Below, one piece after another: positions 33,391-35,159 of a stretch of DNA of 43,489 nt. This DNA comes from Solirubrobacteraceae bacterium. GTDB lineage: Bacteria; Actinomycetota; Thermoleophilia; Solirubrobacterales; Solirubrobacteraceae. The notes beneath the pieces were generated by a model, which worked only from the letters and a program-made list of their open reading frames with translations, was not told the DNA's origin and searched no databases. Location: the NCBI GenBank assembly GCA_017882445.1, contig JADGPK010000019.1, positions 1-43,489 of the forward strand, given 5' to 3'. The translations under genes were made by a program, and so were the position numbers. Position 1 is the first letter of the stretch. Each line of letters begins with the position of its first letter.

Positions 33391-33418
33391 TTGCGTTCGC
33401 CGATACGGTTGCTAGACT
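33391..33418 (+). promoter_or_regulatory. Promoter of SAM-riboswitch transcript
   Basis: TTGCGT (33391-33396) and TAGACT (33413-33418) are 16 bases apart, the best -35/-10 pair in the region. Transcription would begin near 33425, about a dozen bases before the P1 stem of the riboswitch. Confidence 0.6.
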
Positions 33419-33436
33419 TCCGGATCACATCGACGT

Positions 33437-33529
33437 ACACATCGAGAGGGGTGGAGGGCCTGGCCCTGCGAAACCCCGGCAACCACCGCCAAGTCACAGG
33501 CGGGAAGGTGCCAATTCCAGGTGATGTGT
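33437..33529 (+). ncRNA. SAM-I (S-box) riboswitch aptamer
   Basis: The element has the S-box consensus in order: P1 5' strand ACACATC (33437-33443), GAGAGGGGTGGAGGG with the kink-turn, CTGGCCCTGCGAAACCCCGG, GCAACCACC, P3 stem CCGCC/GGCGG (33486-33490 and 33499-33503), GGTGCCAATTCC at the P3-P4 junction, and P1 3' strand GATGTGT (33523-33529), a perfect 7-bp match to the 5' strand. S-box RNAs bind S-adenosylmethionine and usually shut off methionine-pathway genes. Here it leads a threonine-synthase-like gene and a sulfur carrier gene. SAM-IV has a different layout and fits less well. Confidence 0.92.
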
Positions 33530-33583
33530 GGCGGGCTTCGCGCTCTTCGCCACACGTGACAAGGCGAAGTCATAGCGAAGGAG
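33523..33583 (+). promoter_or_regulatory. Riboswitch expression platform acting on the ribosome binding site
   Basis: The P1 3' strand overlaps an 8-bp hairpin stem GTGTGGCG (33526-33533) / CGCCACAC (33548-33555), so P1 and this hairpin exclude each other. When P1 forms, CTCTTCG (33543-33549) is free to pair with the Shine-Dalgarno region CGAAGGAG (33576-33583), and CTTCGCC (33545-33551) can also pair with GGCGAAG (33563-33569). This predicts translation off with SAM and on without it. There is no U-run, so a transcription terminator is unlikely. The pairings are seen; the switching is inferred. Confidence 0.6.
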
Positions 33584-33588
33584 CCCCA

Positions 33589-34884
33589 ATGGCTGTCAGT
33601 CATCTTCAGTGCAAGGAGTGCAAGGCCGAGTATCCGCTCGAGGCGCTCTACGTATGCGACCAGTGCTTCGGACCGCTGGAGGTCGTCTACGACCACGACC
33701 GCTCCACGCTCGACGTGGGCGAGCTGCGGCGCCGCATCCAGGGCGGTCCGCAGAACATCTGGCGCTACGCGGACTTCCTTCCGCTCGCGGGCGGCCCTCC
33801 CGGACCCTCAGGGCGGCTCGCGTCGCGCGTGGGCCTGCCGGCCGGCTGCACGCCGCTGATCCGAGCCGACAGACTCGCAGAGCGGCTGGGGCTGCGCGAG
33901 GTTTGGGTCAAGAACGACGCGGCCAACCCGACGCACTCCTTCAAGGACCGCGTGGTGTCGGTAGCGGTCACGCGGGCTCGCGAGCTCGGGTTCGAGACGA
34001 TCGCGTGCGCCTCGACGGGCAACCTCGCGAACTCGGTCGCGGCGCACGGGGCGGCGCTGGGGATGGACTCCTACGTCTTCATCCCCGCTGATCTGGAGGA
34101 GCAGAAGATCCTCGCCACGGGCATCTACGGGACCACGCTCGTGGGTGTGGAGGGCAGCTACGACGACGTCAACCGCCTCTGCACCGAGCTGTGCGCCGAA
34201 CGCGACTGGGCGTTCGTGAACATCAACCTGCGTCCCTACTACGCCGAGGGCTCAAAGACCCTGGCGTTCGAGATCGCCGAGCAGCTCGGCTGGGAGATCC
34301 CCGACCGCTGCGTCGTGCCGGTCGCCTCGGGGTCGCTGTTCACCAAGATCGCCAAGGGCTTCGAGGAGTGGATCGAGCTCGGGTTGCTCGACGGCGGCGG
34401 CCCATCTTCGATCGGTTCCTCGGCGCCGCGGCTGCCACGGATGAACGGCGCCCAGGCCGAGGGATGCTCGCCCGTTGCGAGCGCGTTCGCCGCCGGCAAC
34501 GAGGTCTGCCGCCCGGTCAAGCCGAGCACGATCGCGAAGTCGCTGGCGATCGGCAACCCCGCCGATGGCCCCTACGCGCTCGATCTGGCGCGCCGCACGG
34601 GCGGCTCGGTGGACGCCGTCACCGACGAGGAGATCCGCGCGGGCATCAAGCTGCTGGCGGAGACGACGGGGGTCTTCACCGAGACCGCCGGGGGCGTCAC
34701 GACGGCCGTGCTGTCCAAGCTCGCGGCGCGCGGGGACATCGATCCCGACGAGCGCGTCGTGCTGGTGATCACGGGCGAGGGCCTGAAGACGCTTGACGCG
34801 GTGCGCGGCGCGTTCGAGACCCACACGATCGCCCCGACGATAGAGGCGTTCGAGGCGGGCGTGCCCGAGGGGACGGCGGTCTGA
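33589..34884 (+). CDS. Threonine-synthase-like PLP enzyme under SAM control
   Basis: This 431-residue fold-type II PLP enzyme would be annotated threonine synthase, which turns O-phosphohomoserine into threonine. An N-terminal zinc ribbon (CKECKAEYPLEALYVCDQC) is followed by VWVKNDAANPTHSFKDRVVS with the Schiff-base lysine K119 and by CASTGNLANSVAAHG for cofactor phosphate. Common ThrC proteins read NPTGSFKDRG here, so His and Val are notable. GAAGGAG at 33577-33583 precedes the ATG. Its stop overlaps the start of a sulfur carrier gene (TGATG), and a SAM riboswitch leads the operon. Both features suggest that it may make a sulfur amino acid (homocysteine from O-phosphohomoserine), as CysM uses CysO in Mycobacterium, rather than threonine. 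That is inference. Confidence 0.85.
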   Translation: MAVSHLQCKECKAEYPLEALYVCDQCFGPLEVVYDHDRSTLDVGELRRRIQGGPQNIWRYADFLPLAGGPPGPSGRLASRVGLPAGCTPLIRADRLAERLGLREVWVKNDAANPTHSFKDRVVSVAVTRARELGFETIACASTGNLANSVAAHGAALGMDSYVFIPADLEEQKILATGIYGTTLVGVEGSYDDVNRLCTELCAERDWAFVNINLRPYYAEGSKTLAFEIAEQLGWEIPDRCVVPVASGSLFTKIAKGFEEWIELGLLDGGGPSSIGSSAPRLPRMNGAQAEGCSPVASAFAAGNEVCRPVKPSTIAKSLAIGNPADGPYALDLARRTGGSVDAVTDEEIRAGIKLLAETTGVFTETAGGVTTAVLSKLAARGDIDPDERVVLVITGEGLKTLDAVRGAFETHTIAPTIEAFEAGVPEGTAV

Positions 34885-35159
34885 TGGCGGTGGTCGTGAA
34901 GATCCCCACGCAGCTGCGGGCAGCGGCCGGCGGCGAGGCCGAGACCGTGCTCGACGGCGCCACTGTGCAGGAGGTGCTCGACGGTCTGTTCGAGCGCTTC
35001 GAGGAGCTGCGCACCCGCATCTCAGACGACGACGGCTCGCTGCGTCGCTTCGTGAACGTGTACCTGGCCGGCGAGGACATCCGCTTCCTGGATGGGCTCC
35101 AGACACCGGTGAGCGACGGCGCGGAGCTGACGATCCTGCCCGCCGTCGCCGGCGGCTAG
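34884..35159 (+). CDS. MoaD/ThiS-family sulfur carrier protein
   Basis: This 91-residue ubiquitin-fold protein ends in the diglycine that is adenylated and converted to a thiocarboxylate in MoaD, ThiS and CysO. It begins VVVKIPTQLRAAAGGEAETVL and has RFVNVYLAGEDIRFLDGLQTPVSDGAELTILPAVAGG-type layout, with the NVYLNGEDIR-like strand that is close to CysO. Its ATG overlaps the stop of the threonine-synthase-like gene, so the two are made together under the SAM riboswitch. No activating E1-like enzyme or JAMM protease gene lies in the window; they would have to be elsewhere. A role as sulfide donor to the neighbouring PLP enzyme is the best guess. Confidence 0.88.
   Translation: MAVVVKIPTQLRAAAGGEAETVLDGATVQEVLDGLFERFEELRTRISDDDGSLRRFVNVYLAGEDIRFLDGLQTPVSDGAELTILPAVAGG

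What the first reader, a model, noticed from the sequence alone, without database searches (positions are those of the whole stretch)
33391..35159. SAM riboswitch operon of threonine-synthase-like enzyme plus sulfur carrier: possible thiocarboxylate route to homocysteine
A SAM-I riboswitch leads a two-gene operon of a fold-type II PLP enzyme of the threonine synthase family and a MoaD/ThiS/CysO-like protein ending in Gly-Gly. SAM feedback makes sense for methionine synthesis, not threonine, and CysM/CysO in Mycobacterium sets a precedent for a fold-type II PLP enzyme using a sulfur-carrier thiocarboxylate. Threonine synthase already passes through a beta,gamma-unsaturated PLP intermediate of O-phosphohomoserine, so gamma-thiolation to homocysteine is chemically plausible. 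The active-site loop here reads NPTHSFKDRVV rather than the usual NPTGSFKDRG. The gene would otherwise be labelled thrC and its role missed.
Basis: partly seen in the sequence, partly recalled or inferred. Interest (0 to 1): 0.85.

Follow-up and report, generated by a model that had tools for sequence, protein, structure and literature searches.

The report
Riboswitch-controlled homocysteine synthase and carrier
A soil bacterium's gene pair that databases would call "threonine synthase" most likely makes homocysteine, the precursor of methionine, taking sulfur from a small carrier protein and shutting down when the methionine product SAM is plentiful; this route was published for Streptomyces in 2024, so it is a good new example rather than a new discovery.

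Summary
A full-length SAM-I riboswitch (33436-33530) leads a two-gene operon: a 431-aa threonine-synthase-family PLP enzyme (33589-34884) and a 91-aa ThiS/MoaD-like carrier ending in Gly-Gly (34884-35159). It is already published as MetM/MetO (Hasebe et al. 2024, Streptomyces), a paper not held here and seen only through passages of PMC12172450.

Own-genome tests fit: a separate canonical thrC-thrB pair, MetH present, no full-length MetB/MetC/MetY/MetZ-type enzyme, no MetA, no convincing MetX, and only this SAM riboswitch. The DUF39 route was not searched. A lone E1 and a lone JAMM protein sit with cysO and cysM and could serve MetO.

The riboswitch lies upstream of 40 of 40 tested close homologues; a carrier gene lies beside 75 of 80. 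In Actinomycetota 72 of 197 sampled genomes have the enzyme, 49 with the riboswitch within 600 bp upstream. Against a simple replacement story, 57 of the 72 also keep a PF01053 enzyme, and 15 of 50 inspected loci lack an adjacent carrier. Activity was not testable.

Verdict: new member of a known kind.

The parts
33436..33530 (+). SAM-I (S-box) riboswitch aptamer
   Evidence: cmscan RF00162, 69.4 bits, full model 1-108; present upstream of 40 of 40 tested close homologues
33526..33555 (+). predicted anti-sequestor: GTGTGGCG (33526-33533) with CGCCACAC (33548-33555); overlaps the 3' strand of aptamer helix P1 (GATGTGT, 33523-33529), so the two exclude each other
   Evidence: ViennaRNA constrained folds; motif kept in several close relatives such as L019, L021, L022, L025 (by eye); inference
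33533..33586 (+). predicted SD-sequestering hairpin (OFF state): GGGCUUC (33533-33539) pairs with GGAGCCC (33580-33586)
   Evidence: MFE with P1 formed; pairing probability of the GGAG core 0.97-1.0, against 0.35-0.68 when the anti-sequestor is forced
33577..33583 (+). Shine-Dalgarno GAAGGAG of the enzyme gene
   Evidence: sequence; index printed
33589..34884 (+). metM-like gene: fold-type II PLP enzyme of the threonine synthase family, 431 aa, N-terminal CxxC...CxxC ribbon, PLP lysine K119 (by analogy) in NPTHSFKDRVV
   Evidence: lies in the MetM-like clade
34884..35159 (+). metO-like gene: ThiS/MoaD/CysO-type sulfur carrier, 91 aa, C-terminal Gly-Gly; start overlaps the metM stop
   Evidence: PF02597, SAMP1; closest solved chains 4n6e_B (ThiS/MoaD family protein) and 3dwg_C; 47% identical to the genome's CysO-like carrier over 87 aa

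Best explanation
The operon is a MetM/MetO homocysteine synthase of the kind reported in Streptomyces, kept under SAM feedback. ThrB makes O-phosphohomoserine (OPH). The carrier (MetO) is adenylated at its C-terminal Gly-Gly and thiocarboxylated, presumably by the rhodanese-E1 fusion on contig C11. The PLP enzyme (MetM) eliminates phosphate from OPH to a beta,gamma-unsaturated intermediate, as threonine synthase does, and the carrier's thiocarboxylate attacks C-gamma. The acyl-carrier adduct is cleaved, possibly by the lone JAMM (Mec-like) protein, giving homocysteine, which MetH methylates. When SAM is high, P1 of the riboswitch forms, the anti-sequestor cannot, and the ribosome binding site is hidden. 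Shown here: the parts, their conservation, and that the conventional homocysteine enzymes searched for were not found. Inferred: substrate, sulfur donor, role of E1 and JAMM, and the switching.
For: (1) Published precedent: MetM, a homocysteine synthase acting on OPH in Streptomyces, with a SAM riboswitch upstream of S. albulus metM; a metO homologue is annotated as a sulfur carrier and lies next to the cyanobacterial homologue (passages of PMC12172450). That metO follows metM in S. albulus and donates sulfur as a thiocarboxylate is recalled. (2) Own genome: canonical thrC with thrB, both over their NCBIfam cut-offs, after lysA- and hom-like ORFs (by eye). PF01053: best match 34 bits over 96 of 381 positions, over Pfam's 27-bit cut-off but lying in a class I/II aminotransferase (PF00155, 145 bits). 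No MetA. MetX best 29 bits over 55 of 351 positions. MetH present. (3) The absence recurs: 15 of 72 MetM-bearing genomes have no PF01053 match at 1e-60, among them 6 of the 15 of this class and two more of this family, one of those a single contig. (4) Only SAM-I match of the genome. SAM-I is upstream of 40 of 40 tested close homologues, 40 of the 80 having been tested, and within 600 bp upstream in 49 of 72 genomes across the phylum. (5) Carrier gene adjacent in 75 of 80 close-relative loci and in Nonomuraea, and in 35 of 50 phylum loci; 62 of the 76 end exactly in Gly-Gly. (6) In the same phylum sample SAM riboswitches also precede PF01053 genes: 13 pairs within 2.5 kb, 2 of them directly (124 and 127 bp) and 11 at 0.9-1.4 kb. 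(7) Homologues form one clade, 100/99, apart from canonical ThrC and six other ThrC-like proteins. V122, V123, R215, Y218, S222 and S247 are invariant in 131 of 131 rows and differ from this genome's canonical ThrC.
Against: No activity was or could be measured. The S. albulus MetM sequence is not held, so identity to the tested enzyme was not computed; the nearest named proxy is Nonomuraea (51.5%). Not searched in this genome: the DUF39 homocysteine route, so 'sole route' is not established. Five of 80 close-relative loci (L033, L034, L035, L040, L043) and 15 of 50 phylum loci have no adjacent carrier, so a linked carrier is not obligatory. Across the phylum MetM does not replace PF01053 enzymes: 57 MetM genomes have both, and the 2x2 odds ratio is 2.0, p 0.052, in the wrong direction; one of the three other sampled genomes of this family (G147) has both. 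23 of 72 MetM genomes have no SAM-I match close upstream. The own genome is 94.9% complete, so a missing gene is possible. The MetX model's cut-off was reached in none of 14 control genomes, so it gives no clean yes or no. A MetM homologue, M. aeruginosa ThrC, was reported to act as threonine synthase and deaminase with no clear homocysteine product. The OFF fold is also the unconstrained minimum (-75.6 against -69.9 kcal/mol for the anti-sequestor state), so switching would need co-transcriptional folding.
Confidence: 0.88

Rival explanations
1. MetM makes homocysteine from OPH but takes sulfur from free sulfide or from a general carrier (such as the CysO-like protein); the adjacent carrier is an accessory or serves another thiolation.
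For: Adjacent carrier missing in 5 of 80 close-relative loci and 15 of 50 phylum loci; the genome has three further ThiS-family carriers, one 47% identical to this one.
Against: The carrier start overlaps the enzyme stop (TGATG) under the same riboswitch; it is adjacent in 75 of 80 close-relative loci.
Confidence: 0.12
2. It is a second threonine synthase whose SAM control balances OPH flow between threonine and methionine.
For: TIGR00260 thrC score far over the cut-off; substrate OPH is shared; plant threonine synthase is known (recalled) to respond to SAM.
Against: A canonical thrC already sits with thrB. SAM-off control of threonine synthesis has the wrong sign, since SAM activates the plant enzyme (recalled). 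The carrier gene would be unexplained, and the conventional homocysteine enzymes searched for were not found. Loops equivalent to NSVNxxR and GNAGN of canonical ThrC are replaced by N-x-N-x-RPxY and ASGS.
Confidence: 0.05
3. It is a bifunctional or catabolic enzyme (threonine deaminase-like), as proposed for a cyanobacterial homologue.
For: PMC12172450 reports deaminase activity for M. aeruginosa ThrC, 51.6% identical to S. albulus MetM.
Against: That gene lacks the SAM riboswitch; here SAM feedback and a linked carrier point to sulfur assimilation.
Confidence: 0.03

Closest known systems
MetM/MetO homocysteine synthesis from O-phospho-L-homoserine (Hasebe et al. 2024, Streptomyces albulus; seen only through passages of PMC12172450; the rest recalled)
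   Same: Threonine-synthase-like enzyme, Gly-Gly sulfur carrier beside it, SAM riboswitch upstream; a canonical thrC elsewhere in the genome
   Different: Class Thermoleophilia, judging by its nearest named relatives; no full-length PF01053 enzyme found in this genome; the riboswitch acts by predicted SD sequestration here and by a terminator-like hairpin in some relatives; activity untested
CysM/CysO/Mec cysteine synthesis (Mycobacterium; recalled)
   Same: Fold-type II PLP enzyme with a CysO-like Gly-Gly carrier; carrier matches 3dwg_C
   Different: Enzyme belongs to the threonine synthase family, not cysteine synthase; product inferred to be homocysteine. A separate carrier, cysteine synthase, JAMM and E1 cluster exists in the same genome
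HcyS/MetY thiocarboxylate route (Wolinella succinogenes; recalled)
   Same: Homocysteine from a protein thiocarboxylate
   Different: MetY is fold-type I (PF01053) and uses O-acetylhomoserine; no full-length PF01053 enzyme found here
Canonical threonine synthase ThrC (2zsj, 6cgq, 1uim)
   Same: Fold family by sequence, PLP lysine motif, OPH as presumed substrate
   Different: SFKDRVV in place of SFKDRG; loops NSVNxxR and GNAGN replaced; partner gene and riboswitch

Membership tests
MetM/MetO pathway | Threonine-synthase-family PLP enzyme distinct from the genome's canonical ThrC | tested here: met
   separate clade 100/99; canonical thrC on C11, 34% identical
MetM/MetO pathway | Sulfur-carrier gene ending in Gly-Gly beside it | tested here: met
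   34884-35159, ILPAVAGG
MetM/MetO pathway | SAM riboswitch upstream (reported for S. albulus metM) | tested here: met
MetM/MetO pathway | Direct sequence similarity to S. albulus MetM | not tested
   sequence not held; proxy Nonomuraea locus L099 is 51.5% identical, with riboswitch and carrier, and a cpn60 ORF downstream
MetM/MetO pathway | OPH plus carrier thiocarboxylate gives homocysteine; loss gives methionine auxotrophy | not testable with these tools
   needs purified proteins and a mutant
SAM-I riboswitch RF00162 | Full aptamer above the gathering score | tested here: met
   69.4 bits, gathering 44.4, model 1-108
Canonical threonine synthase | TIGR00260 above cut-off | tested here: met
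   283.7 bits, cut-off 167.1; the C17 paralogue passes too, so this model does not separate the kinds
Canonical threonine synthase | SFKDRG and the NSVNxxR and GNAGN loops seen in 2zsj, 6cgq, 1uim and (as NSVNEFR) the own ThrC | tested here: not met
   SFKDRVV, N-x-N-x-RPxY, ASGS
HcyS/MetY route | PF01053 (MetY) partner | tested here: not met
   no full-length PF01053 match in the genome; the partial one is an aminotransferase
CysM/CysO | Enzyme is a cysteine synthase | tested here: not met
   TIGR01136 cysKM 38.5 bits against a cut-off of 344.15; a cysteine synthase over that cut-off is on C11
DUF39 homocysteine route | DUF39 and NIL/ferredoxin proteins in the genome | not tested

The most novel reading that the evidence does not exclude
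In this lineage MetM/MetO is the sole route to homocysteine, and one rhodanese-E1 fusion plus one JAMM protein serve both thiocarboxylate routes (CysO-CysM for cysteine and MetO-MetM for homocysteine) as well as MoaD and ThiS. The same enzyme family may also explain prototrophic bacteria with no known homocysteine pathway, such as the actinobacterium Acidimicrobium ferrooxidans named as an open case by Price et al. 2018.
Probability: 0.35. Interest if true: 0.5.

Novelty: new member of a known kind. Interest (0 to 1): 0.35.

Why it matters
Genes like this are labelled thrC (TIGR00260 passes its cut-off), so pathway tools could call these bacteria methionine auxotrophs or miss the step. The sample here puts the enzyme in 72 of 197 Actinomycetota genomes, so it is common in this phylum, and 15 of those have no PF01053 match at 1e-60. 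Diagnostic features (SFKDRVV, riboswitch, carrier) could be used to correct annotations and to test the unexplained homocysteine pathways listed by Price et al. 2018 (passages).

Tried and rejected
A second threonine synthase: rejected mainly because a canonical thrC lies with thrB and because the conventional homocysteine enzymes searched for were not found. The His of NPTHSFKDR as a diagnostic residue: rejected, 29 of 50 phylum loci have NPTH. A simple replacement of PF01053 enzymes by MetM across the phylum: not supported. An all-thiocarboxylate sulfur metabolism with no sulfide step: weakened, because the C36 ORF (PALP) looks like a cysK by eye. A terminator in the window's own leader: none found; the leader fits SD sequestration instead. 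Structure prediction was asked for twice and the machine was busy, so no structural test was made. Not searched in this genome: the DUF39 route and MetE.

Papers: Hasebe et al. 2024 is not held. PMC12172450, PMC5764234 and PMC12452182 were seen as passages only; PMC7857596 had no passage for my terms. Literature searches were made; no listing named this pair in Thermoleophilia, but the library lacks most subscription papers. The threonine synthase residues named as phosphate-binding (T. thermophilus N154, S155, R160, N188) are recalled, not looked up; their alignment to MetM is.
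Full report
What is there. The window carries, on the + strand, a full-length SAM-I aptamer at 33436-33530 (69.4 bits, gathering 44.4), then a 431-aa ORF from ATG 33589, then a 91-aa ORF whose ATG overlaps the stop of the first (TGATG at 34882-34886). The first protein is a PALP-family enzyme that passes the NCBIfam thrC model (283.7 bits, cut-off 167.1) and, by sequence, best matches solved threonine synthases (2zsj, 6cgq, 1uim). 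The second is a ThiS/MoaD-like carrier ending LPAVAGG; its best solved relatives are 4n6e_B (ThiS/MoaD family protein) and 3dwg_C, which I recall as the mycobacterial carrier CysO.

The genome around it. In the window's own genome (3.27 Mb, 234 contigs, 94.9% complete) the thrC model finds three genes over its cut-off. One, on C11, has the canonical NPTGSFKDRG loop and is followed by thrB; both pass their NCBIfam models. The lysA and hom genes before them are read by eye from the ORFs. That supplies O-phosphohomoserine and threonine. The third, on C17, is 42% identical to the window enzyme, reads SRPSLSYKDRVV and lies next to a class I aminoacyl-tRNA-synthetase-like ORF. PF01053, the family of MetB, MetC, MetY and MetZ, gives only partial matches; the best, 34 bits over 96 of 381 positions, passes Pfam's low cut-off of 27 but lies in an ORF that is a class I/II aminotransferase (PF00155, 145 bits). 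MetX gives short matches of at most 29 bits and MetA none. The MetX model's cut-off of 500 bits was not reached in any of the 14 control genomes either, so the judgement on MetX rests on how short and weak the matches are. The DUF39 route was not searched. MetH is present. The window's riboswitch is the only SAM-I match in the genome. There is one ThiF-family E1 and one JAMM protein, both on C11, clustered with a CysO-like carrier and a cysteine synthase. The E1 is a rhodanese-MoeB fusion. Four ThiS-family carriers exist, so this E1 would have to serve them all unless another was missed in assembly.

Close relatives. The scan of genome contigs kept 80 loci (175 stretches encoded a relative, the best 80 kept, so close relatives are favoured). 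Most are titled Solirubrobacterales, Solirubrobacteraceae or Thermoleophilaceae; some bear broad titles, and one Chlamydiae and two Bifidobacterium breve titles look like wrong bin names. The order belongs to class Thermoleophilia. All 80, and Nonomuraea gerenzanensis (L099), read NPTHSFKDRVV (81 of 81). A carrier ORF lies beside 75 of the 80 and beside the Nonomuraea gene. Of these 76, 62 end exactly in Gly-Gly, 12 have one or two further residues and 2 are cut by the contig end. It is absent in L033, L034, L035, L040 and L043, and a profile search found none there. I scanned 40 of the 80 for RNA families, mostly ones with upstream DNA: 40 of 40 have SAM-I upstream of the gene. Nonomuraea, 51.5% identical, has riboswitch, gene pair and a cpn60 ORF downstream.

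Phylum survey. In 197 Actinomycetota genomes (90% complete or better asked for, the window's included), 72 have a homologue at E up to 1e-85, all at 53% identity or more; the own C17 paralogue stands apart at 44%. A SAM-I match lies within 600 bp upstream in 49 of the 72 (scored with stricter filters that lose some weak matches). Of the 23 without, three (G017, G056, G152) lie at a contig start or match only in part, and nine belong to one family (f14), in which 9 of 9 lack the riboswitch and 6 of 6 inspected loci also lack the carrier. Over 50 of the phylum loci, the window's own among them, 35 have a carrier gene within 900 nt downstream; at least one of the 15 without (L149) has almost no DNA left. 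PF01053 enzymes at E up to 1e-60 occur in 57 of the 72 and in 82 of the other 125 (odds ratio 2.0, p 0.052). So MetM is not generally a replacement. But 15 MetM genomes have none: six of the 15 MetM genomes in this class, including the window's and two others of its family; a further genome of the family, G147, has both. In the same sample I found, by eye and script, 13 SAM riboswitch-PF01053 pairs within 2.5 kb, 2 directly adjacent and 11 with 0.9-1.4 kb between, which agrees with this riboswitch governing homocysteine genes.

Tree and residues. A 68-row tree puts the homologues, with the C17 paralogue, in one clade (100/99) apart from the own canonical ThrC and six other ThrC-like proteins. 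The long branches of the outgroups and of the C17 paralogue make their exact places unsure, and the program warns of this. In 131 rows (80 close relatives, the window, Nonomuraea, 49 others of the phylum) V122, V123, E170, R215, Y218, S222 and S247 are invariant and differ from the own canonical ThrC. R215/Y218 and S247 lie in the loops that read NSVNxxR and GNAGN in canonical ThrC. These loops hold the substrate phosphate in the T. thermophilus enzyme (recalled). My inference is that remodelling the phosphate site disfavours water attack at C-beta and favours thiol attack at C-gamma.

Switching. With P1 formed, the leader folds so that GGGCUUC (33533-33539) pairs with GGAGCCC (33580-33586) and hides the SD (core pairing 0.97-1.0). 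Forcing the alternative GTGTGGCG/CGCCACAC hairpin, which shares bases with P1, lowers this to 0.35-0.68 at a cost of 5.7 kcal/mol. Of 19 leaders printed, several close ones (L019, L021, L022, L025) keep this arrangement, while L041, L051, L053, L057 and L098 have a G+C hairpin followed by a T run before the start (read by eye). Both would be OFF with SAM, the sign expected for a methionine gene.

Comparison with the known. PMC12172450 (passages) states that Hasebe et al. 2024 found a homocysteine synthase MetM in Streptomyces that converts OPH to homocysteine, that S. albulus metM has an upstream SAM riboswitch, that a homologue of metO is annotated as a sulfur carrier, and that MetM prevents methionine auxotrophy. 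That MetO follows MetM and works as a thiocarboxylate is my recall of the Hasebe abstract. The window operon meets each of these features that sequence can test. The same paper is also the main caution: a cyanobacterial homologue without the riboswitch behaved as threonine synthase and deaminase, and with sulfide gave only an unidentified peak. Price et al. 2018 (passages) list organisms, among them the actinobacterium Acidimicrobium ferrooxidans, with no known homocysteine route; whether they have MetM was not tested here.

Verdict. This is a new member of a known kind, in a class where it may be the only homocysteine route of some species.

Noticed in passing
L104:2773-4137 (own genome C17): Third threonine-synthase-like paralogue, 42% identical to the window enzyme, with SRPSLSYKDRVV at the PLP loop, beside a class I aminoacyl-tRNA-synthetase-like ORF with a leucyl-type editing domain match. 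Function unknown.
   Followed up: partly
L128, L138, L139, L155, L156, L157 (family f14): One actinobacterial family keeps a MetM homologue (NPSNSFKDRVV or NPSYSFKDRVV) without the SAM riboswitch (9 of 9 genomes) and without the adjacent carrier (6 of 6 loci); its role may have changed.
   Followed up: partly
L041, L051, L053, L057, L098 against window 33526-33586: The expression platform of the same riboswitch differs within the class: terminator-like hairpin and T run in some relatives, SD-sequestering hairpin in the window's clade (by eye).
   Followed up: partly
L103:3553-8351 (own genome C11): Rhodanese-MoeB fusion, CysO-like carrier (ends GGAG, so it may need trimming), cysteine synthase and a JAMM protein in one cluster, interrupted by an opposite-strand oxidoreductase-like ORF (label by eye).
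   Followed up: partly
L024:5475-5549: A c-di-GMP-I-GGC riboswitch match (61.1 bits, gathering 59) downstream of the metM operon in a relative.
   Followed up: no
L148, L149 (family f20): MetM homologues (NPTNSFKDRVV) with a strong SAM riboswitch but no carrier found downstream (L149 has only 88 bp left on its contig).
   Followed up: no
L036, L070, L083: Records titled Chlamydiae or Bifidobacterium breve carry a Solirubrobacterales-like metM at 70-79% identity; the bins are probably wrongly named.
   Followed up: no
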